From a virus: DNA of 64,000 nucleotides. Positions 2,623-49,686 of the stretch are shown here, in pieces. The DNA lies in IMG/VR virus record IMGVR_UViG_3300015171_000001, positions 93,281 to 157,280 of that record; one strand, given 5' to 3'. The notes under the pieces were generated by a model. The model searched no databases and was not told the origin of the DNA. It saw only the letters and a list, made by a program, of their open reading frames with translations. How positions within the stretch are numbered: the first letter of the stretch is position 1; each line of letters opens with the position of its first letter. The translations under genes were made by a program, and so were the position numbers.

Positions 2623-3168
2623 ATGATTACTTCGAACAATCCAATAGACACATCAGTTTCCAGTTTCAAAATGATTGCAAGTCCACTTGGTGGGGATTTG
2701 TTTCCTATTTTGAGTCAAATTACTGGGAGCGATTGGCAAAATTATAGTATTAGATATATTGATTTACATGATGCAATATTATCATCTGTTACATCTTCTA
2801 TTGTTACTGGTTCTATTCAAAATGCTGTCAGTGCGAGTTATGCGGTTTTTTCAAGGACATCAAATTCTTCTAGTTTTTCTACAAATTCACAAACAGCATC
2901 AATTTCAATTACATCGAGTTATGCATTGACTGCGAGTGGTTTTACAAATAGATCATATAATGCTTCTATTGGTGATGGTACAAGTCAAACATTTGTATTG
3001 GGTCATAATTTAGGGACAAATAGTTTATTATATTCTATGTATGATGTAACTTCTTCACAAGCTGTAATACCGAGTTTAACATTTACAGACAATAATAATG
3101 CTTCTTTACATTTTTCTAGTGTCCCCGCCGCAAATCAATACAGCATTGTTTTATTTAAACCAATTTAA
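2623..3168 (+). CDS. Small fibre-associated structural protein
   Basis: A 181-residue Ser/Thr-rich protein. Its centre contains the SASYAVFSRTS and ITSSYALTASG type of motif that is repeated dozens of times in the 1397-aa fibre protein at 4309, which suggests a shared beta-structured fibre fold or a co-assembling partner. The C-terminal ~70 residues (TSQTFVLGHNLGTNSLLYSMYD, read in two halves, to the final IVLFKPI) resemble a small beta-sandwich tip domain. That resemblance is inference; I do not recognise a named family. It sits between the endonuclease scar and the metallopeptidase-like gene, which starts 2 nt after its stop. Confidence 0.6.
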   Translation: MITSNNPIDTSVSSFKMIASPLGGDLFPILSQITGSDWQNYSIRYIDLHDAILSSVTSSIVTGSIQNAVSASYAVFSRTSNSSSFSTNSQTASISITSSYALTASGFTNRSYNASIGDGTSQTFVLGHNLGTNSLLYSMYDVTSSQAVIPSLTFTDNNNASLHFSSVPAANQYSIVLFKPI

Positions 3169-3170
3169 TT

Positions 3171-4271
3171 ATGTTATTAGAATCTTTATCAGAATATAAT
3201 AAAAATTGTATTTCTAGATTTTGTTCATATTGTTTTAAAACTTTAAAGATTGAAAATCCTTGTAAAGTAATAATGTGTTCAGAAACTCCTAGTAAAACTA
3301 GTTTTGCATATTATGACCCGAACAACAAATCTTTAAAAGTTTCTTATAAAAATAGAAATTTGGCAGATGTTTTAAGAAGTATTGCCCACGAAATTGTTCA
3401 TTATAAACAAGATTTATTGGGAATATTACATGAGAAGAGTGGAATTACAGGAAGTAAACACGAGAATCAAGCAAATTCTCTTGCCGGAATTTTAATGAGA
3501 AATTGGGCTAAAAAAGATCCTACTATATTTAAAACATTATTATCTGAATCAAATTCTGGTATTCAATCTAATGAAAAATATTCCAAAATAAAAGAATTAA
3601 TAAAGCAAGAAGTAATTCAAGTATTAAAAATTCTTCCACAGAACGAATCATTTTACAATTTAAAAAAAAAGAATAAACAATATTCAGATATAATAGATGG
3701 GGAAGTTGGGTTAAAAGTAAAAGTTATTGATAGAGTTGTAAATTTTTATATTGTCGTTGAATTTGTTGATAATTTAAAATTGACCGACGATAATTTTATT
3801 TCTGGAATGTATTATGGAAAAGGAAATTCTATTTATTTAAAAATAAAAGCATATAATCCAGAAAGTAAAATATTTAAAGATGATATGTCTGCGATGGTTA
3901 TTGGTGGGAAAAATTATTCTAAGTTTTTAAATTTAACTCCAAGAGATGTTATTTCCTCAAAAACATTGGAAAAAGTAACAGATCACGAAACAGTACATTA
4001 TTTTAATGATAAAATAAATAAAGTGGATCATTCTAATGTTAAACCCCAAGACATAAATTCAAAATACAAATATCTTTCTGAACCAGAAGAAATTCTTGCA
4101 TATACTGCACAATTGGTAAATGATATTAAAAATTCACACGAGAAAACATTAGAAGATTTTCTTAAAAAATCCTCGTGGTGGTTAGAATATGAAAAAGAAG
4201 TTTTTCCAAAAAATCCAAAAATTAGAAGTAAAATGTTATCAAAATTAGCAAATGCATGGAATGCTAAATAA
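3171..4271 (+). CDS. Protein with two tandem HExxH metallopeptidase-like domains
   Basis: 366 residues. The first domain carries H73-E-I-V-H77 with a downstream Glu (E98 in KHENQAN). The second carries H272-E-T-V-H276 with a downstream acidic helix (SEPEEILAYTAQL, E307). Both fit the gluzincin pattern HExxH plus a distal Glu zinc ligand, so the protein looks like a duplication of a small zinc peptidase domain joined by a Lys/Glu-rich linker. The N-terminus MLLESLSE contains an LxE tripeptide like the sites cut by T4 prohead protease, so packaging in the capsid is possible (inference). Context is late structural genes. Substrate unknown; a cell-wall or virion-processing role is only a guess. 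Confidence 0.6.
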   Translation: MLLESLSEYNKNCISRFCSYCFKTLKIENPCKVIMCSETPSKTSFAYYDPNNKSLKVSYKNRNLADVLRSIAHEIVHYKQDLLGILHEKSGITGSKHENQANSLAGILMRNWAKKDPTIFKTLLSESNSGIQSNEKYSKIKELIKQEVIQVLKILPQNESFYNLKKKNKQYSDIIDGEVGLKVKVIDRVVNFYIVVEFVDNLKLTDDNFISGMYYGKGNSIYLKIKAYNPESKIFKDDMSAMVIGGKNYSKFLNLTPRDVISSKTLEKVTDHETVHYFNDKINKVDHSNVKPQDINSKYKYLSEPEEILAYTAQLVNDIKNSHEKTLEDFLKKSSWWLEYEKEVFPKNPKIRSKMLSKLANAWNAK

Positions 4272-4295
4272 ATCAATTTCTAAATAATATTTCAT

Positions 4296-4305
4296 TATAT
4301 TTATA
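4296..4305 (+). promoter_or_regulatory. AT-rich promoter-like motif before fibre gene
   Basis: TATATTTATA ends 3 nt before the ATG at 4309. If the first six bases (TATATT) act as a -10 box, transcription would start at or next to the start codon, giving a leaderless mRNA. No Shine-Dalgarno sequence is present. Confidence 0.4.
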
Positions 4306-4308
4306 GTT

Positions 4309-7300
4309 ATGTCGATTTATATTCCAAATCAAACAACTATTGCTGGAAACCTTACTGTACAAGGAAGTATTACTGCCTCATATATTCAAGGCACAGCTTC
4401 TTATGTACAAGGAACATCTTCATATTCAACTATTGCTAATTCAGCATCATACGCATCCAGTAGTACATTGTCACAGACATCATCATATGCTTTAAATGCT
4501 GTTGGTTTAAATTCAGGAAGTTTTACAGGATCATTTACAGGATCAATATTAGGAACATCGAGTTTTTCAAATTCTTCTAGTTATGCTTTCAATTCAAATT
4601 TATCACAAACTTCTAGTTATAATTTAAATTCTATTTCGTCAAGTTATTCACTAAATTCAACGACTGCATCTTATGCATTAAATGCAGTAGGTTTAAATAG
4701 TGGATCATTCACTGGAAGTTTTTCGGGTAGTTTATTAGGAACATCTAGTTATTCATTATTATCTTTAAGTAGCAGCTATGCTTCTAGTTCTACTATTTCC
4801 CAAACGGCTTCTTATGTTTTAAATTCAATAAGTGCATCTTATTCACAAAATGCATTAACAGCTTCATACGCTCTTAATGCCATTGGATTAAATTCAGGCT
4901 CATTTACTGGTTCTTTCATAGGATCATTATTGGGAACATCTTCTTACTCAACTATTGCCAATTCTTCGTCTTATGCATCTAGTTCCACATTATCGCAAAC
5001 TTCTAGTTATGCATTAAATGCTATTGGGCTAAATACTGGGAGTTTTACAGGATCGTTTACTGGAAGTTTATTAGGATCTAGTTCATATGCATTAAATTCC
5101 AATAATAGCATAACTGCATCATATGCATCTAGTTCTATTTCTTCATCATTTTCGCAAACATCTTCATATACTAATGGAGGGGCAACGACAGGAAGTAATT
5201 CGTTTGTTGGAAATCAAACAATAACAGGAAATTTAAATGTTATTGGGACGGCATCTATATCTGTAATTTATACAAATTATATAACAGCGTCTACTGAGTA
5301 CAGTACGGGTTCAAATATTTTTGGAAATAGTCAAGCAAATACACATCAATTTACTGGAAGTGTATACATCACTGGAAGTTTAACTTCACCAAATATTACC
5401 GGATCTTTATTAGGAACATCTAGTTATGCAACTTTTTCAAATTCTTCAAGTTATGCTTCCAGTTCTACATTATCACAAACTTCTAGTTATAATTTAAATT
5501 CAGTAAGTTCATCATTTTCTACAACGGCATCTTATGCATTAAATGCTGTGGGTTTAAATTCAGGAAGTTTTACGGGATCATTTACAGGAAGTATTAATGG
5601 TTCAAGCTCTTATTCATCAAATTCTAACAATAGCATAAGTTCGTCGTTTGCATCGAGTTCTATATCTTCGTCATATACAGCAACCGCCTCAATTTCTTAT
5701 AATGTTAGTGGTAGTGGAACTGGTTCATTTACAGGATCGTTTTCTGGAACGCATACGGGGTCATATACTGGTTCTTATACAGGCTCATTTACGGGAAGTT
5801 TCACAGGATCTTTATCCGGCACTTCTTCATATTCTATTACATCTTCTTATGCATTAAATGCTGTGGGTTTAAATTCAGGAAGTTTTACTGGTAGTTTTAC
5901 TGGTTCTCACACAGGAAGTTTTAATGGATCAATGACGGGAAGTCATACAGGATCATTTACCGGATCTTATACTGGATCTTTTATTGGAAATCACACTGGA
6001 TCATATACAGGAAGTTTTAATGGATTAATGTCTGGAAGTTCAACTGGTTCTTTTACGGGATCTTATACTGGTAGTTTTACGGGAAGTTTTCTAGGAACCT
6101 CTTCATTTTCTTTAGTTGCCGGTAATTCAACAACATCATCCTATGCTTTAAATGCTGTCGGTTTAAATACTGGAAGTTTTACTGGGTCATTTACTGGATC
6201 TTTATTAGGATCTAGTTCTTATTCATTAAATTCTAATAATAGCATAAGTTCAAGTTATGCATCGAGTTCAGTATCTTCTTCATTTTCACAAACCTCGTCT
6301 ATTGGTTATAATGTTAGTGGAAGTGGAACGGGGTCATTTACAGGAAGTTTTACTGGAAGCTTTACTGGTATTATTACCGGATCATTACAAGGAACTTCAT
6401 CATTTTCATTTAATTCAGTTACTGCCTCTTATATATTAGGGGGAGCTACAGTTTCTTCTGCTTCTTATGCAACTTTCGCATCTAACGGAAGTGGCTCTTT
6501 TACTGGGTCTTTTTCTGGTTCTTTAACAGGAACATCTAGTTATGCAACGTTTGCAAATTCTGCATCATATGCATCTAGTTCTACATTGTCACAAACTTCC
6601 AGTTATAATTTAAATTCTGTAAGTTCGTCATATTCACAAACTTCTTCAACTTCTTCTTATGCATTAAATGCATTGAATTTAAATACAGGATCATTTACAG
6701 GAAGTTTCACCGGATCATTATTAGGAACATCTAGTTATTCAATAATATCTTTGAGTGGTAGTTATGCTTCCAGTAGTACATTATCACAAACTTCTAGTTA
6801 TAATTTAAATTCAGTATCAAGTTCTTTCTCAAATAATTCTATAAATAGCTTAACTTCTAGTTATGCATCAAGTTCAATATCTTCTTCATTTTCACAAACA
6901 TCATCAATTTCTTATAATGTTAGTGGAAGTGGATCGGGGTCGTTTACCGGAAGTTTTACAGGATCACTATTAGGAACTTCTTCTTATGCATTAAATTCTT
7001 TAACTTCTAGTTATTCAATTAATTCAACAACTGCGTCATATGCCTTAAATGGTGGCTCTAGTTCAACTGGAAGTTTTACTGGTTCATTTACTGGAAGTTT
7101 ATTAGGAACATCAAGTTATTCGTTAATATCTTTAAGTAGTAGTTACGCATCTAGTAGTACATTATCACAGACATCGTCATATGCTCTTAATGCAGTGGGA
7201 TTAAATAGTGGATCGTTTACTGGTTCATTTACTGGATCATTATTAGGATCTTCATCATATTCCATAACTTCTAGTTATTCTTCTACAAGCAATATATCAA

Positions 7301-41593: not shown

Positions 41594-42763
41594 ATGGCAA
41601 AGAAAAATGATCTGACAAAAAAGGTAGAAGTAGATGATAGAGATAGAGATAAAATTACAAATGAAATAGTTTCTATATTAAATAAAGAATCTAAAGATCT
41701 AGGAGATGTTGCGTTTTTTTTAAATGATGGAGACGTTACTAAAATATCAGATTGGGTTTCTACTGGAATTGACGAATTAGATCTTAAAATTTCTAATAGA
41801 AAAAATGGCGGATTACCAGCTTCTAGAATTATTGAAATAAATGCTGCTGAAGGCGCAGGTAAGTCATTATTAGCAGCAAATTTGGTAGTTTCTACTCAGA
41901 AAAAAGGAGGAATTGCCGTTTTATTTGATACGGAAAATGCTATATGTACAGAATTTTTAAAAGCTGTTGGTGTCAAATTTGATGGAAGTTTTATTTTATT
42001 TAAAAAGTTGCATTCAGTTGAAGATGTTTTTGCCAATATAGAAAGAATGATAATGCTTTTAAATGAAAAAAATAAAGATACTTTAGTAACTATTATTGTG
42101 GATTCATTGACAGCTATAATGCCAAAAATAACATTGGTAGCAGATTATGAAGCTGAAGGATATGGAACACAGAAAGCAAAATTATTATCTATATTTTTAG
42201 CTAAGTTAAATCCTTTGGTAGAACGAAATAAGGTTTGTCTAGTATTTACCAATCAATTAAGAGAAAAGATTGGTGTCATGGGATTTGGAGACAAAACTAC
42301 GACATCTGGAGGAAAAGCTTTGGGGTATTATGCTTCTGTAAGAATAAGACTAAAGGCTATTGGAAAAATAACAGATGCAAAAACTAAAGAGGTTCTTGGA
42401 GTAAAAACCGAAGCTATTATATATAAAAATAGAATGGGTCCACCACACAGAAAAAGTACATTCATGATTTATTTTGAATCTGGAACAGATAATGTTGAAA
42501 ATTGGATTACTGTATTAAAAGATCATGGAATTTCAACAGGGGCCAAGAAACCTCATAAATATAAAACGGATGCTGGAGAAGAGATTGAATTAACAAAACA
42601 AAATGTTAAGAAAATTTTAAGAGAAAAGGGAGATCTTTATAATGAATTATACGAAAAATTTTCTAAGGCATTAATTAAAGAATATAAAGAATATGATTCT
42701 GATATTGAAGTTGTGAATATAGATAATGGTGATAATGATGATTGTGAAGTTAATTTAGAATAG
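41594..42763 (+). CDS. uvsX: UvsX-like RecA-family recombinase
   Basis: 389 residues. Walker A AAEGAGKS at 84-91 (EINAAEGAGKSLLAANL), Walker B-like VTIIVDSLTAIMP, catalytic loop VCLVFTNQLREKIGVMG, and DNA-binding loop GDKTTTSGGKALGYYASVRI. This is the RecA/UvsX core that drives strand exchange and recombination-dependent replication with gp32. It has a clear Shine-Dalgarno (TTTAGGAGAAAATATG), one of few in this window. The acidic C-terminus (DNGDNDDCEVNLE) is usual. Lies between terminators, so it is a separate transcription unit. Confidence 0.92.
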   Translation: MAKKNDLTKKVEVDDRDRDKITNEIVSILNKESKDLGDVAFFLNDGDVTKISDWVSTGIDELDLKISNRKNGGLPASRIIEINAAEGAGKSLLAANLVVSTQKKGGIAVLFDTENAICTEFLKAVGVKFDGSFILFKKLHSVEDVFANIERMIMLLNEKNKDTLVTIIVDSLTAIMPKITLVADYEAEGYGTQKAKLLSIFLAKLNPLVERNKVCLVFTNQLREKIGVMGFGDKTTTSGGKALGYYASVRIRLKAIGKITDAKTKEVLGVKTEAIIYKNRMGPPHRKSTFMIYFESGTDNVENWITVLKDHGISTGAKKPHKYKTDAGEEIELTKQNVKKILREKGDLYNELYEKFSKALIKEYKEYDSDIEVVNIDNGDNDDCEVNLE

Positions 42764-44011: not shown

Positions 44012-45334
44012 ATGCAACAAAATCCAATAGACAGTTTATCAAAGTTCGGAATATCATTTCAACAAAAATGTATTTCTAGTTTATTATCCGACAAAACATT
44101 TATTGAACAAATAATAGATATTTTAGATCCAACATATTTTGATAATGATGCACATCAATGGATTATTACGGAGATCAAAAGTTATTTTAATAATTATAAA
44201 CAATTAATTACCTTGGACGTATTTAAAGTTAGAATTGATACTTTGAGCGGGGAAGAATTAAAAAGATCTATTATTGATCAATTAAAATTAATTTATCAAA
44301 AGATTAAAGATCAAGACATCATTTATATTAAAGAACAATTTTTAAATTTCTGCAAAAATCAAAAATTAAAAACTGCAATTTGTGATTCTGTTGATTTATT
44401 GAAAATTGGCCAATATGAAAAAATTAAACAATTGGTTGATGACGCACTAAAAGCAGGAATGGAACAAAATGTTGGTCATGATTATTTGAACGATATTGAT
44501 GAAAGAATGACTAATATTATTAGACAAACAGTTTCTACTAATTGGGAAGTTATTGATGAATTAATGGATGGTGGATTAGGTTCTGGAGAATTGGGAGTTA
44601 TTGTTGCCCCTGCTGGGATTGGAAAAAGTTGGGGATTGGTTAAGTTAGGTGCGGAAGCAATGAAGTCTGGAAAGAATGTTGCTCATATTACACTTGAATT
44701 GAATGAAAATTATGTTGGCAGAAGATATGATTCTTGTTTTACTAGAATAGATTTTAAAGATATACCAAACGAAATTGGATTAGTAAAAGAGTCTTTAAAT
44801 AAAGTTACTGGAAAATTATTTATTAAAAAATATCCAATTAAATCAATTAGTGCAAATAGTATAAAAGCTTATGTTGAAAGATTGCGAATGTTAGGAACAA
44901 GAATAGATTTACTTGTGGTGGATTATGCAGATATTTTAAGGTCAATGTCTAGTGATAAAAATAGTAATTCTTATAGTGATGCCGGGAATATTTACGAAGA
45001 GTTAAGAACTGTTTTGGATGAATTGGGTATACCTGGGTGGACGGCGAGTCAAACAAATCGTTGCCTTTCTTTACAAACCATTGTGTATAAAGAAGTTACA
45101 AACGAATGTAAAATTTCGGAACTAAAAATAGGAGATAAAATATTAACAAACAATGGTTATAAAAAAGTCAGCAATATATTTCCAATAATAAAACAACCAG
45201 TTTATAGAATAAAATTAAAAAGTGGGAAATCAATAGATTGTTCTATAAACCACAAATTCCCCACAAGATATGGGAAGTTTTTAAGTATAGAACATGGATT
45301 ATCTGTTGGAGATAAATTATTTGTAAAAAAGTAG
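44012..45334 (+). CDS. 41: Replicative helicase gp41, N-extein plus N-half of split intein
   Basis: 440 residues. 1-350 are a DnaB-type helicase N-part: Walker A IVAPAGIGKSWGLVKLG (~197-213), then HITLELNENYVGRR, and LLVVDYADILRS (Walker B). Extein ends ASQTNR. Residues 351-440 (from 45062) are an intein N-fragment: catalytic Cys1 in CLSLQTIVYK (block A), GDKILTNNGYKKVSNIFP, and SGKSIDCSINHKFPT (block B with TxxH-like His), ending KLFVKK and a TAG stop. Partner is the 45799 gene; trans-splicing would give a ~455-aa helicase. Position and style match the known naturally split gp41 inteins of metagenomic phages. Confidence 0.92.
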   Translation: MQQNPIDSLSKFGISFQQKCISSLLSDKTFIEQIIDILDPTYFDNDAHQWIITEIKSYFNNYKQLITLDVFKVRIDTLSGEELKRSIIDQLKLIYQKIKDQDIIYIKEQFLNFCKNQKLKTAICDSVDLLKIGQYEKIKQLVDDALKAGMEQNVGHDYLNDIDERMTNIIRQTVSTNWEVIDELMDGGLGSGELGVIVAPAGIGKSWGLVKLGAEAMKSGKNVAHITLELNENYVGRRYDSCFTRIDFKDIPNEIGLVKESLNKVTGKLFIKKYPIKSISANSIKAYVERLRMLGTRIDLLVVDYADILRSMSSDKNSNSYSDAGNIYEELRTVLDELGIPGWTASQTNRCLSLQTIVYKEVTNECKISELKIGDKILTNNGYKKVSNIFPIIKQPVYRIKLKSGKSIDCSINHKFPTRYGKFLSIEHGLSVGDKLFVKK

Positions 45335-45359
45335 TTTTTATCTGTTTCCATCCATATAA

Positions 45360-45806
45360 ATATGGACGGCAACATATTTCAAAACTATAGAACAATTATT
45401 AAATCAAAAACCATTTTTACCATTTAAAAATTTAGTTAATGCTCATACACTAACACAAATAGATATTCTTATTAAAAAATATACCAAATATTTTTTAATA
45501 AATTTGAGAAAAGAAATGGTGGTAAATTTAATAAAATATAATGTAGATGGAGATTGGCTTTTTAGATTGGAAGAAAGTAAAAAATATAGAAAAGATGGAT
45601 TTTCTTTGGAATCTTGTAAATTAAGATATGGAGAAATAATCGGAACAAAATTATATGAAGATAGAAGAAAATCCATAATAACAAAAAGAGAAAATTACAC
45701 AGATATTACATGGAAAGAACTGTGTAATAAAAAAATAAGTAATTTAGGATTGAATGGATATATTAATAAATATGGAAAAGAATTAGGAGAAAAAAATTAT
45801 GCGTGA
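45360..45806 (+). pseudogene. Endonuclease-like ORF inside split intein locus
   Basis: An open frame from 45360 with no good start (ATA TGG ACG..., TTG at 45504). It encodes a helical N-part (KNLVNAHTLTQIDILIKKYT) and then DGFSLESCKLRYGEIIGTKL, YEDRRKSIITKRENYTDITW, NGYINKYGKELGEKNYA. The repeated KYG/RYG-E-xG-kxY motif is found in phage homing-endonuclease proteins. An ATG in another frame at 45362 gives only 22 codons, so the 5' part is probably broken. It ends 8 nt inside the intein C-half gene and supplies its ribosome-binding site. It is located exactly where free-standing endonucleases sit in other fractured split-intein genes. Confidence 0.6.
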
Positions 45807-46257
45807 ACATGGATTAAATAATAAGGATTTTATATTAGATGAAATTGAGAGTATAGAATTAATGGGAGATCAAGAAACAATAGATATTACTGTAGAAGAT
45901 ACACATATGTTTTTTGCAAATGATATATATACTCACAATTCTGGTTCTGAACAAGATATTGTTCAGGCAGGAAGTATTGCAGATTCTTATAGAAAAATTA
46001 TGACAGCAGATTTTGTATTGTCTCTTTCTAGAAAGATAAATGATAAAGAAAATAGCACTGCTAGGTTTCATGTTATCAAAAATAGATTTGGTTCGGATGG
46101 AATGACATTTCCAGCAATTATGAATACTTCTAATGGTGATATCAGATTATTTAAGTCTGATTCAGAAGAAGGAATGAATATTCAATCAAAAATGAACGAT
46201 GTAGAAAATTCAGTAAAAAAGATGTTAAAAGATAAATGGAACAGTAGAGAAGAGTGA
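45799..46257 (+). CDS. 41: Split-intein C-half plus C-extein of helicase gp41
   Basis: 152 residues. Residues 1-47 are the intein C-fragment: DEIESIELMGDQETIDITVE, then DTHMFFANDIYTHN with block F and terminal His46-Asn47 (block G), followed by Ser+1 (SGSEQDIVQAG). The C-extein of 105 residues carries the end of the DnaB core (RKIMTADFVLSLSRK, FHVIKNRFGSDGMTFP). A Shine-Dalgarno AGGAG lies 9 nt upstream, inside the endonuclease-like ORF. Together with 44012-45334 it reconstitutes gp41 by protein trans-splicing. Confidence 0.92.
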   Translation: MREHGLNNKDFILDEIESIELMGDQETIDITVEDTHMFFANDIYTHNSGSEQDIVQAGSIADSYRKIMTADFVLSLSRKINDKENSTARFHVIKNRFGSDGMTFPAIMNTSNGDIRLFKSDSEEGMNIQSKMNDVENSVKKMLKDKWNSREE

Positions 46258-46357: not shown

Positions 46358-48625
46358 ATGAATACAATAATGAGCACAAAAGAGATTTTAGTTAAAAAAA
46401 GAAATGGTGAATTAGAACCATTAAATATTGAGAAAATCAATAAGGTTATATCATGGGCAATAGAAGGATTAGAAGATGTTTCTATTTCAGATATAGAAAT
46501 GAATGCCAAGATTAATTTTATTGATGGAATTACTACTAAAGATATACACAACATCATTATTGAGAGTGCTGTAAATCTAATTGATATTGATCATAGTGAC
46601 TATCAATATGTTGCATCAAGACTTTTAAATTATTCACTTCGTAAAGATGTTTGGGGTGGAAAAAGACCGCCCAAATTATCAGATTTAATTAAGAAAAATA
46701 TAAAAAATGGTAAATATTCTCCTGCATTATTAGAAACATATACTGAATCAGAAATTAATAAATTTGATGAAATAATTGATCATGATAGAGATTTTAAATA
46801 TACCTACGCTGGTATAAAACAAATGACAGATAAATATCTATTAAAAGATTTATCAAAAGATGTTTTCTTTGAAACGCCACAATTTGCACATATGGCAGCA
46901 GGTATGTTTGTTTTTCAAAAATATTCAAAACTAAAAAGAGTAGAATATGTTAAACGATATTATAAAATGGCATCTGATTTTAAAGTGAATTGGAGCACTC
47001 CATTATTAAGTAAGCTTAGAACACCAGATTCTGCATTAGCTAGTTGCTGCCTTTTGGAACTAAATGACACAAAAGAATCCATCGATGCTGTTAATTATGC
47101 GGTTTCTGCTGCTACTTATAATGGTTATGGAATTGGTGTTAATATGGGAAGAATGCGAGGAATTGGTTCTCCAATTAACAAAGGAAAGATGTTCCATCCA
47201 GGAGTAATTCCATTTTTAAGAATTATTGAATCGGAGGTTAAAGCATGGACGCAAATTTCGAGGGGTGGGAGTGCAACTTGCACATTTCCTCTGTGGCATT
47301 ATGAGATTGAAGATATCTTACAATTAAAAAATGCGGTATCTGGAACTGCCCAAAATAGAATTTTTAATTTAGATTATACAATTGGAATTTCGCAATTATT
47401 TTATTCTAGATTTGTAAAAAACGAGAATATAACATTGTTTTCTCCTAGTGAAGTTCCTGATTTATATGATGCATATGGCACTGATAAATTTGAAGAACTT
47501 TATAAAAAATATGAATCGGATGATTCCATAATTGGTAGAAAAGTTATTTCTGCTAAACAATTATTTGAACTTTTGATTAAAGAAAGATTTGAATCTGGAA
47601 GAATTTATATATTAAATGTAGATAATGCAAACAAACATGGTAGTTGGTGTAACTCTATCTATATGAGCAACTTATGCTTAGAAATACTTCAGGATATTGT
47701 ACCATTGAAAAGTTTATGGGATGAAACATCAGAAATTGGAACATGTCTTTTAAGTGCGATAAATTGGTTAGAAGTAAAAACCGAACACGAAATGGAGAGG
47801 GCATGTGATTTAGTAATTAGAGTATTGGATGAAGTAGCAGATTTACAATCTTATTTTCATCCAGCAGCAGAGAGATTTACTAAACAAAAAAGAAGTTTGG
47901 GAGTAGGAATAACCAATTTGGCCGGATTTCTAGCATATCATAAATTAAAATATTCAGATAAAGAAGCATTGGAATTAGTACATAATAAAATTGAACAACA
48001 ACAATATTATCTTCTGAAATCAAGTAATCAATTGGCAATAGAGAAAGGAAAGTGTGAAAAGTTTGATACATCAAAATATTCTATTGGAAAACTTCCTATT
48101 GATTGGTATAATAAAAATGTTGATACCCTTATTTCAAATAATTTAAAAATGGACTGGGAAACTATTAGAAATTCAATTAAAGAACATGGTTTGAGAAATA
48201 CGACAGTCTCTGCAATTATGCCATGCGAAAGTTCGAGTGTCTGCAATAATTCAACAAATGGAGTTGAACCAGTGCGAGCTTTGTCCGTATTTAAAGGTTC
48301 TAAAAAGGGGTTGATTTCATTTTTAGTTCCCAATGTAAAAACTCATGGAGAACATTATACATTGGCTTTTGAACAACCAGATAATATTGGATATTTAAAT
48401 ATTTGTGCAATTATTCAAAAATTTACAGATATGGGGATGTCTATTAATGTTTATTATAATCCCGCCAATTATTCAGATAAAAAAGTTCCTTATCAAATCA
48501 TGTTAAAAGAAATGTTATATCATTCAAAAATGGGTGGAAAAACAATGTATTATTCAAATACACAAGATGGAAATAAACAATTTGAATCTAAGAATAATTG
48601 TAGTTCGGGGGCATGTTCCTTATAA
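46358..48625 (+). CDS. nrdA: Ribonucleoside-diphosphate reductase alpha subunit
   Basis: 755 residues, class I large subunit. It has an N-terminal ATP-cone (ILVKKRNGELEPLNIEKINK, ~7-95). The active site includes SCCLLELNDTKESID (first redox Cys), YNGYGIGVNMGRMRG, a loop NLCLEILQDIVPLKS, and SAIMPCESSSVCNNSTNGVE. A C-terminal Cys pair (NNCSSGACSL) is the thioredoxin/glutaredoxin-reducible tail. It makes dNDPs for phage DNA synthesis. A second ATG (46370) would remove 4 residues; the first is kept. Directly followed by nrdB. Confidence 0.93.
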   Translation: MNTIMSTKEILVKKRNGELEPLNIEKINKVISWAIEGLEDVSISDIEMNAKINFIDGITTKDIHNIIIESAVNLIDIDHSDYQYVASRLLNYSLRKDVWGGKRPPKLSDLIKKNIKNGKYSPALLETYTESEINKFDEIIDHDRDFKYTYAGIKQMTDKYLLKDLSKDVFFETPQFAHMAAGMFVFQKYSKLKRVEYVKRYYKMASDFKVNWSTPLLSKLRTPDSALASCCLLELNDTKESIDAVNYAVSAATYNGYGIGVNMGRMRGIGSPINKGKMFHPGVIPFLRIIESEVKAWTQISRGGSATCTFPLWHYEIEDILQLKNAVSGTAQNRIFNLDYTIGISQLFYSRFVKNENITLFSPSEVPDLYDAYGTDKFEELYKKYESDDSIIGRKVISAKQLFELLIKERFESGRIYILNVDNANKHGSWCNSIYMSNLCLEILQDIVPLKSLWDETSEIGTCLLSAINWLEVKTEHEMERACDLVIRVLDEVADLQSYFHPAAERFTKQKRSLGVGITNLAGFLAYHKLKYSDKEALELVHNKIEQQQYYLLKSSNQLAIEKGKCEKFDTSKYSIGKLPIDWYNKNVDTLISNNLKMDWETIRNSIKEHGLRNTTVSAIMPCESSSVCNNSTNGVEPVRALSVFKGSKKGLISFLVPNVKTHGEHYTLAFEQPDNIGYLNICAIIQKFTDMGMSINVYYNPANYSDKKVPYQIMLKEMLYHSKMGGKTMYYSNTQDGNKQFESKNNCSSGACSL

Positions 48626-48630
48626 ATATT

Positions 48631-49686
48631 ATGAAAACCGTTTTAAATTTAATAAATGTGCCAGTAGAAGAACGCATAATGTTTTTAGGACCAGAATTGT
48701 CCTTGCAGAGATTTGATCAAGTAAAATATCCAAAATTTCTAGAAATTTATGAAAAAATGGAGACTTTTAGATGGCAACCATCTAGAATAAATTTAAATAA
48801 AGATAGAATTGATTATGAAAAAATGAGTGATGTTGAATTACATGTTTTTCAATCTAATATCAGATGGCAGACAGCAGTAGATGCTTGTTTAAGTAGATCT
48901 ATTCATAATATTTCTCAATACATAACTAATTGTGAACTTGAAATTTGTTGTACGTCATGGGCATCGTTTGAAACGCTTCACTCATTTTCGTATACTTTTT
49001 TGTTTAAAAATGTTACAAAAGATGCGACAAAATTCTTTGATTCGATATTAGAAGATCCAATGATTATTGAGAGAGCAAAAAATATTACTAGTGCATATGA
49101 TTCTTTTTTTGGCAATCCAACAGATATAAAACAAACTATTTTTGATGCAATTTTAAATACTCAAGCAGTTGAGGGAGTTAGTTTTTATACTAGTTTTATA
49201 TGTTCTTTTTATTTTGGTGCAAAAGAAAAAATGACTGGATCTGCTGATATTATAAAAGAAATTGCCAGAGATGAAGCATTACATGTTTCTATTACGCAAA
49301 ATATATTTAAAAATTGGAAAACACATCCAGAAGAGGGATTTCAAGAATTATTGAAAAGAAATGAAGAAAAAGTATATGAATTTTATAAATTAATTGTTAA
49401 GCAAGAATCTGATTGGACTGATTATCTTTTTAGTAAAGGTTCATTATTGGGACTTAATTCCGAAATATTAAAATCATATACCGAATATATTGCCAATAAT
49501 CGACTTGCTAGTATGGGATATAAAAAGATATTTAAAACTAAAAATGATCCCACTGTTGGATGGTCTGCTGGATATTTTGATTCTTCTATTTCTCAACCAG
49601 CACCACAAGAAACAGAAATAACTTCTTATCTATCTAATGCGGCGAATACTGATTTGAATTTGAATGAATTTGAAGGATTATTATAA
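48631..49686 (+). CDS. nrdB: Ribonucleoside-diphosphate reductase beta subunit
   Basis: 351 residues from the ATG at 48631; the frame opens 6 codons earlier inside nrdA. Diiron ligands and radical site region: ISQYITNCELEICCTSWASF, ETLHSFSYTFLFKNV (ExxH), SFYTSFICSFYFGAKEK, EIARDEALHVSITQN (ExxH). C-terminus DLNLNEFEGLL supplies the peptide that binds NrdA. Usual size for NrdB. Confidence 0.93.
   Translation: MKTVLNLINVPVEERIMFLGPELSLQRFDQVKYPKFLEIYEKMETFRWQPSRINLNKDRIDYEKMSDVELHVFQSNIRWQTAVDACLSRSIHNISQYITNCELEICCTSWASFETLHSFSYTFLFKNVTKDATKFFDSILEDPMIIERAKNITSAYDSFFGNPTDIKQTIFDAILNTQAVEGVSFYTSFICSFYFGAKEKMTGSADIIKEIARDEALHVSITQNIFKNWKTHPEEGFQELLKRNEEKVYEFYKLIVKQESDWTDYLFSKGSLLGLNSEILKSYTEYIANNRLASMGYKKIFKTKNDPTVGWSAGYFDSSISQPAPQETEITSYLSNAANTDLNLNEFEGLL

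What the first reader, a model, noticed from the sequence alone, without database searches (positions are those of the whole stretch)
44012..46257. Naturally split intein in replicative helicase gp41
The helicase is encoded in two genes. The first ends in an intein N-fragment starting at Cys (codon 351) and bearing block A and B motifs; the second opens with a 47-residue intein C-fragment ending His-Asn, then Ser. Exteins total about 455 aa, a full helicase. Known naturally split gp41 inteins from metagenomes have this layout, and some of those are very fast trans-splicers. The exact N- and C-fragments here may be a new allele.
Basis: partly seen in the sequence, partly recalled or inferred. 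Interest (0 to 1): 0.85.

Follow-up and report, generated by a model that had tools for sequence, protein, structure and literature searches.

The report
Split phage helicase intein, decayed endonuclease
A phage's DNA-unwinding enzyme is encoded in two pieces that are predicted to be stitched together by a self-splicing split intein; the DNA-cutting gene that normally sits between the pieces is only a broken relic here, and related viruses show that this loss has happened repeatedly while the split intein stayed intact.

Summary
A DnaB/gp41-type helicase is split after residue 350. ORF 1 (44012-45334) ends in a 90-residue intein N-fragment (Cys1, block B His). ORF 2 (45799-46257) opens with a 47-residue C-fragment ending His-Asn|Ser. 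The exteins total 455 aa and join exactly as in intein-free homologues.

They hold the N-terminal 40% of a free-standing Vsr-like (EDxHD, I-Bth0305I-type) homing endonuclease. Compared with intact genes in two close relatives, its promoter motif is lost, its start codon is out of frame and its catalytic half is deleted.

Catalytic splicing residues are invariant in all 69. Intein dN/dS is low in close pairs whose endonuclease is gone or truncated. Two near-identical allele pairs catch the deletion.

It is therefore a new allele of a known arrangement ('fractured genes' with gp41-type split inteins), late in the homing cycle. Splicing itself is inferred, not shown.

The parts
44012..45061 (+). 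N-extein: DnaB/gp41-like helicase residues 1-350, ending ...WTASQTNR
   Evidence: PHROG 19 E 2e-58; intein-free homologues run on across this point
45062..45331 (+). Intein N-fragment, 90 aa, Cys1 and block B His64; stop TAG 45332-45334; net charge +10
   Evidence: gp41-1 intein match E 1.8e-14; Cys1 and His64 invariant in 69 of 69 loci, charge
45351..45366 (+). Relic of the endonuclease control hairpin (TCCATATAAATATGGA) over the old start codon ATG 45362-45364; the TATTTAT motif of relatives is lost and the ATG is out of frame with the body
   Evidence: Alignment with L002/L003; motif survey; hairpin survey; frame reads 21 codons then stop
45360..45803 (+). Remnant of a free-standing Vsr-like (EDxHD) homing endonuclease: residues 4-151 of about 355, catalytic domain deleted, no in-frame ATG
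   Evidence: Open frame; aligned to intact L002/L003 endonucleases; profile match E 3.9e-34; no Pfam or PHROG hit
45785..45789 (+). AGGAG, Shine-Dalgarno-like, 9 nt before the C-fragment ATG, lying inside endonuclease-remnant codons
   Evidence: Sequence; most relatives lack such a motif there; function inferred
45799..45939 (+). Intein C-fragment, 47 aa, ends His46-Asn47; net charge -10
   Evidence: gp41-1 C-fragment match E 5.4e-5; NCBIfam intein_Cterm 27.5 bits over cut-off 15.6; HN invariant in 69 of 69
45940..46254 (+). C-extein: helicase residues 351-455, +1 residue Ser; stop 46255-46257
   Evidence: PHROG 19 positions 509-600, E 8e-6; collinear with intein-free homologues

Best explanation
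A fractured helicase gene. Two cistrons make N-extein-IntN and IntC-C-extein. The basic IntN and acidic IntC bind and fold into one class 1 intein; Cys1 starts the N-S acyl shift, Ser+1 takes over the N-extein, Asn47 cyclises, and a 455-aa helicase is released (this chemistry is taken from the intein family, not shown here). The gap between the halves once held a free-standing Vsr-like homing endonuclease with its own promoter motif and start-codon hairpin, which would have copied the insert into helicase genes lacking it. In this virus that gene is dead: promoter motif lost, start out of frame, catalytic half deleted. The split intein is kept because the helicase cannot be made without splicing.
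For: Catalytic residues all present and invariant in 69 distinct loci. N-fragment matches gp41-1 at E 1.8e-14 and C-fragment at 5.4e-5. Intein-free homologues are continuous at the junction. Close relatives L002/L003 hold an intact 348-355-aa endonuclease between the halves, related to I-Bth0305I/Vsr by profile (E 4e-7) and by fold (Z 11.1 and 10.0). The window keeps only residues 4-151 of it. Near-identical allele pairs with and without the endonuclease exist. Intein dN/dS about 0.06-0.1 in three close pairs where the endonuclease is truncated or lost. Opposite charges of the fragments.
Against: No splicing experiment. The window's own deletion junction and start frameshift are seen in one assembly only; no second contig carries them. 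Some more diverged endonuclease-less pairs have dN/dS up to about 0.4. Past mobility of this particular copy is inferred.
Confidence: 0.88

Rival explanations
1. The two helicase pieces work as separate subunits without splicing, as reported for the mobE-split NrdA of phage Aeh1 and the split DNA polymerase of phage 25.
For: Precedents of split phage enzymes that assemble without splicing (PMC2988022).
Against: An unspliced pair would not need Cys1, block B His and His-Asn, yet all are invariant in 69 of 69 loci, and the intein is under purifying selection in close pairs. The break lies inside the conserved ATPase core, after ...WTASQTNR.
Confidence: 0.04
2. Assembly or sequencing artefact: really one gene with a contiguous intein.
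For: Metagenomic assembly; the window junction was found in no other contig.
Against: The three ORFs lie in three different frames. 68 other distinct loci from many assemblies are split at the same site and none is contiguous there.
Confidence: 0.03
3. The endonuclease remnant is still a working protein, for example a DNA-binding regulator translated from a downstream start (TTG 45504, 100 aa).
For: 148 codons remain open. I-TevI of T4 also acts as an autorepressor by binding an operator (PMC3943268; PMC2988022).
Against: No ATG in frame, promoter motif lost, start shifted by a net +4 nt. The seven other remnant loci keep the opposite, C-terminal end, so there is no pattern of keeping the N-terminal part.
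Confidence: 0.08
4. The intein is dead and the helicase a pseudogene, replaced by another helicase.
For: None direct; phages can carry broken genes.
Against: Both ORFs are fully open with intact motifs, and a search of the 157-kb record with the helicase N-part found no second copy, although the record may be incomplete.
Confidence: 0.03

Closest known systems
gp41-1 and gp41-8 naturally split inteins (Carvajal-Vallejos et al. 2012, as reviewed in PMC11766414)
   Same: Same host enzyme type, Cys1 and Ser+1, class 1 mechanism, split at the usual endonuclease position. Fragment sizes 90/47 here against 88/37 (gp41-1) and 94/50 (gp41-8) in the review's table. Sequence match to gp41-1.
   Different: New allele; the best N-fragment relative found is 71% identical. 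Splicing and rate unmeasured. The gp41-8 sequence was not at hand, so it was not compared.
Fractured genes (Dassa et al. 2009, doi 10.1093/nar/gkp095; known from memory and from citing papers, text not held)
   Same: A conserved phage replication enzyme broken in two by a split intein, with a free-standing endonuclease gene between; relatives L002/L003 have exactly this.
   Different: Here the endonuclease is only an N-terminal relic. Eight of 69 loci have remnants and 15 have none.
I-Bth0305I / EDxHD homing endonucleases (PDB 3R3P)
   Same: The catalytic domain of the relatives' endonuclease matches by profile (E 4e-7) and by predicted fold (Z 11.1).
   Different: The window has lost this domain. 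The relatives are free-standing between intein halves, whereas I-Bth0305I is listed as an intron protein and reviewed among group I intron endonucleases.
T4 I-TevI expression control (hairpin plus late promoter; PMC2988022)
   Same: A hairpin occludes translation start in read-through mRNA, and a promoter is placed so that its own transcript would lack the 5' arm. The intact relatives have the same layout.
   Different: Motif TATTTATA rather than the T4-type TATAAATA; the hairpin covers the AUG itself; promoter activity untested; the motif is lost in the window.

Membership tests
Naturally split class 1 intein | Cys (or Ser) at position 1 of the N-fragment | tested here: met
   Cys at 45062; 69 of 69 loci
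Naturally split class 1 intein | Block B histidine (T/S-x-x-H) | tested here: met
   SINH, His64 of the N-fragment; 69 of 69
Naturally split class 1 intein | C-terminal (His-)Asn followed by Ser, Thr or Cys | tested here: met
   THN|S at 45931-45942; HN in 69 of 69, +1 Ser in 68 and Cys in 1
Naturally split class 1 intein | Two fragments on separate ORFs whose exteins rejoin to one known protein | tested here: met
   collinear with intein-free homologues
Naturally split class 1 intein | Protein trans-splicing | not testable with these tools
   Needs co-expression
gp41-1-like intein | Sequence similarity of both fragments to gp41-1 | tested here: met
   E 1.8e-14 and 5.4e-5
gp41-8 allele | Same insertion site and closer similarity than to gp41-1 | not tested
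   Sequence not available in the library; only fragment sizes compared
Fractured gene | Split intein in a conserved phage replication gene | tested here: met
Fractured gene | Intact free-standing endonuclease gene between the halves | tested here: not met
   Only residues 4-151 of about 355 remain in the window; intact in L002/L003
EDxHD (Vsr-like) homing endonuclease | Vsr-fold catalytic domain, in the intact relatives L002/L003 | tested here: met
   DUF559/MTES_1575, 3R3P profile match E 4e-7, model Z 11.1
EDxHD (Vsr-like) homing endonuclease | Catalytic domain present in the window's remnant | tested here: not met
   Remnant ends at residue 151 of the profile; no Pfam or PHROG hit

The most novel reading that the evidence does not exclude
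Breaking this intein is a one-way ratchet. Once the helicase gene is split, the split state is kept, perhaps actively (translational coupling, timing or dosage of helicase), long after the endonuclease is gone. It does not revert to a contiguous mini-intein, even in loci such as L166 where the two ORFs overlap by four bases and a single indel might fuse them.
Probability: 0.25. Interest if true: 0.65.

Novelty: new member of a known kind. Interest (0 to 1): 0.45.

Why it matters
The pair is a ready candidate for the trans-splicing toolbox (oppositely charged halves, Ser+1, native start codon on the C-fragment). More generally, the 69-locus series shows every stage of a homing cycle in split genes: intact, truncated and lost endonuclease, including near-identical allele pairs. 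That makes it testable whether split inteins persist merely as leftovers of endonuclease insertion or for a reason of their own.

Tried and rejected
A single contiguous intein broken by a sequencing error was rejected (three frames, 68 other split loci). Exact-match scans for the window's deletion junction and for an N-intein stretch found no second contig. A scan of the cellular genome collection (84,980 species) with the N-fragment found no relative, so the family looks phage-bound at that sensitivity. A first idea that TATAAATA (the T4 late consensus, present in the window's hairpin) was the promoter was dropped: TATAAATA is never within 60 nt upstream of a listed + strand ORF start here, whereas TATTTATA is in 11 of 19 cases. 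Same-ORF intein pairs in the set all lie at a different helicase site near the P-loop. Overall folding z-scores of the endonuclease leaders were uneven (median -1.37), so the hairpin argument rests on start-codon pairing, not on total stability. Foldseek alone gave the I-Bth0305I match only E 0.08; profile and VIA-align support it better. The fractured-genes paper is not in the library, and the gp41-8 sequence was not found there.

Full report
What is there. The window is bases 93281-157280 of a 157,280-bp virus record. ORF 44012-45334 encodes the N-part of a DnaB/gp41-like helicase (PHROG 19, E 2e-58). At codon 351 (Cys, 45062) it runs into 90 residues that match the solved gp41-1 split intein at E 1.8e-14. 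ORF 45799-46257 begins with 47 residues ending His-Asn, which match the gp41-1 C-fragment at E 5.4e-5, then continues from Ser into the rest of the helicase (PHROG 19). The exteins sum to 455 aa.

Is it a real intein site? A search of viral contigs with the N-extein gave 37 loci. Apart from L002 and L003, those whose contigs extend beyond the junction are intein-free helicases that run straight across the point corresponding to residues 350/351. L002 and L003 (62% and 53% identical in the N-extein) have the same split intein: N-fragments 61-62% identical, C-fragment ORFs 60% and 52%.

What lies between the halves. In L002 and L003 the gap is about 1.07-1.1 kb and holds one ORF of about 350 aa. 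Its C-terminus matches Pfam DUF559 and MTES_1575. A 16-member profile matches the homing endonuclease I-Bth0305I (PDB 3R3P) at E 4e-7. An AlphaFold model (mean pLDDT 86, pTM 0.47) matches 3R3P at Z 11.1 over 95 residues and E. coli Vsr at Z 10.0; Foldseek alone ranks 3R3P first but only at E 0.08. This is the Vsr-like EDxHD class. In the window the gap is 464 bp and holds an open frame without ATG (45360-45803). It aligns to residues 4-151 of the L002/L003 endonuclease profile and stops just at the C-intein ATG; the catalytic domain is missing. The ATG that corresponds to the endonuclease start (45362) is out of frame with the body, by a net +4 nt relative to L002, and reads only 21 codons. 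The profile finds no other copy in the record.

Control element. In 38 of 45 loci with an intact or near-intact endonuclease the spacer carries TATTTAT (5.05 expected from dinucleotide shuffles), a median of 21 nt before the endonuclease ATG. The start codon pairs with upstream sequence: median probability 0.92, against 0.11 for intein-C start codons (Mann-Whitney p 8e-14). Related loci are not independent, and for L003 the script picked an upstream ATG, so the p-value is only a guide. In the window TATTTATA occurs 19 times on the + strand, and 11 of these lie within 60 nt upstream of an ORF start, a zone that is 4.9% of the sequence; those ORFs include a head-decoration-like and a tail-tube gene. 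I read TATTTATA as a late-type promoter of this phage group (inference). The layout equals the T4 I-TevI device, where a hairpin blocks translation from read-through mRNA and a late promoter makes an mRNA lacking the 5' arm (PMC2988022). The window keeps a shortened hairpin (45351-45366) without the TATTTAT motif.

The wider family. Searches with the endonuclease and both intein fragments gave 69 distinct split loci at this helicase site: 46 with an intact or near-intact endonuclease, 8 with a remnant (the window among them) and 15 with none (gap -4 to 101 bp). In none are the two halves in one ORF at this site; the only same-ORF cases lie at another site near the P-loop. Every remnant other than the window's keeps the C-terminal end of the endonuclease; the window alone keeps the N-terminal end. 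On an extein tree (quick method, many weak branches) the intact/decayed state needs 17 changes, so loss has recurred. Two allele pairs show it directly: L178/L176 differ by a 937-bp deletion, and L064/L065 by a 1270-bp deletion between TTACAAAAAA repeats, each pair 99.6-99.7% identical elsewhere in the segment.

The intein stays functional-looking after endonuclease loss. Cys1, block B His and His-Asn are invariant in all 69; +1 is Ser in 68 and Cys in 1. dN/dS over the intein is about 0.1 in the endonuclease-less pairs L151/L152 and L083/L098, and about 0.06 in the truncated pair L084/L092; more diverged endonuclease-less pairs reach about 0.2-0.4. N-fragments are basic and C-fragments acidic (window +10 and -10), which suits electrostatic association of two halves.

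Mechanism. Shown by sequence: the split, the intact catalytic residues, the junction, the truncated endonuclease. Inferred from family knowledge: trans-splicing to a 455-aa helicase; past homing by the endonuclease; present immobility of this copy. An AGGAG lies 9 nt before the C-fragment ATG, inside endonuclease-remnant codons. Most relatives lack such a motif there, so the deletion may have supplied a ribosome site (inference).

Rivals. Non-covalent assembly without splicing has phage precedents (PMC2988022) but does not explain the invariant splicing residues. An assembly artefact does not explain 68 other split loci. A surviving function of the remnant cannot be excluded, but nothing points to it.

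Verdict. It is a genuine new allele of a known kind, a gp41-type split intein in a fractured gene, caught after its endonuclease died. The part I have not seen reported is the graded and repeated endonuclease loss with no case of re-fusion; I could not check it against the original fractured-genes paper, which is not held.

Noticed in passing
window + strand, e.g. 2597, 4298, 13322, 21402, 24271, 33197, 50560: TATTTATA occurs 19 times and 11 lie within 60 nt upstream of ORF starts: a likely late promoter motif of this phage, reverse complement of the T4 late consensus.
   Followed up: partly
same virus record outside the window, G000:C1 69.6-75.9 kb (L192, L193): Contiguous inteins in a 1407-aa portal-like ORF (two of them) and a 560-aa prohead-protease-like ORF; gene names are from reading the sequence only.
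   Followed up: partly
L002 140-3099 and 9970-12917; L003 537-3679: Relatives carry further fractured genes: UvsX/RecA and ribonucleotide reductase split by inteins with endonucleases between. The window's own recA (41594-42763) and RNR genes (46358-49686) are uninterrupted.
   Followed up: partly
L199 (Shigella phage ESh36, ON528746.1) 2882-5862: A T4-like phage isolate (record marked unverified) with a fractured gp41 at a different site, an endonuclease-like ORF between, and a C-fragment ending Lys-Asn|Ser: a possible laboratory model.
   Followed up: partly
L166 and L168: Nearly identical helicase exteins but diverged inteins (dN 0.19, dS 0.85), suggesting replacement of the intein by recombination.
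   Followed up: no
L050, L068, L077, L084 and others: Many of these helicases carry a second intein near the P-loop (residue about 206), contiguous in some loci and split in others.
   Followed up: no
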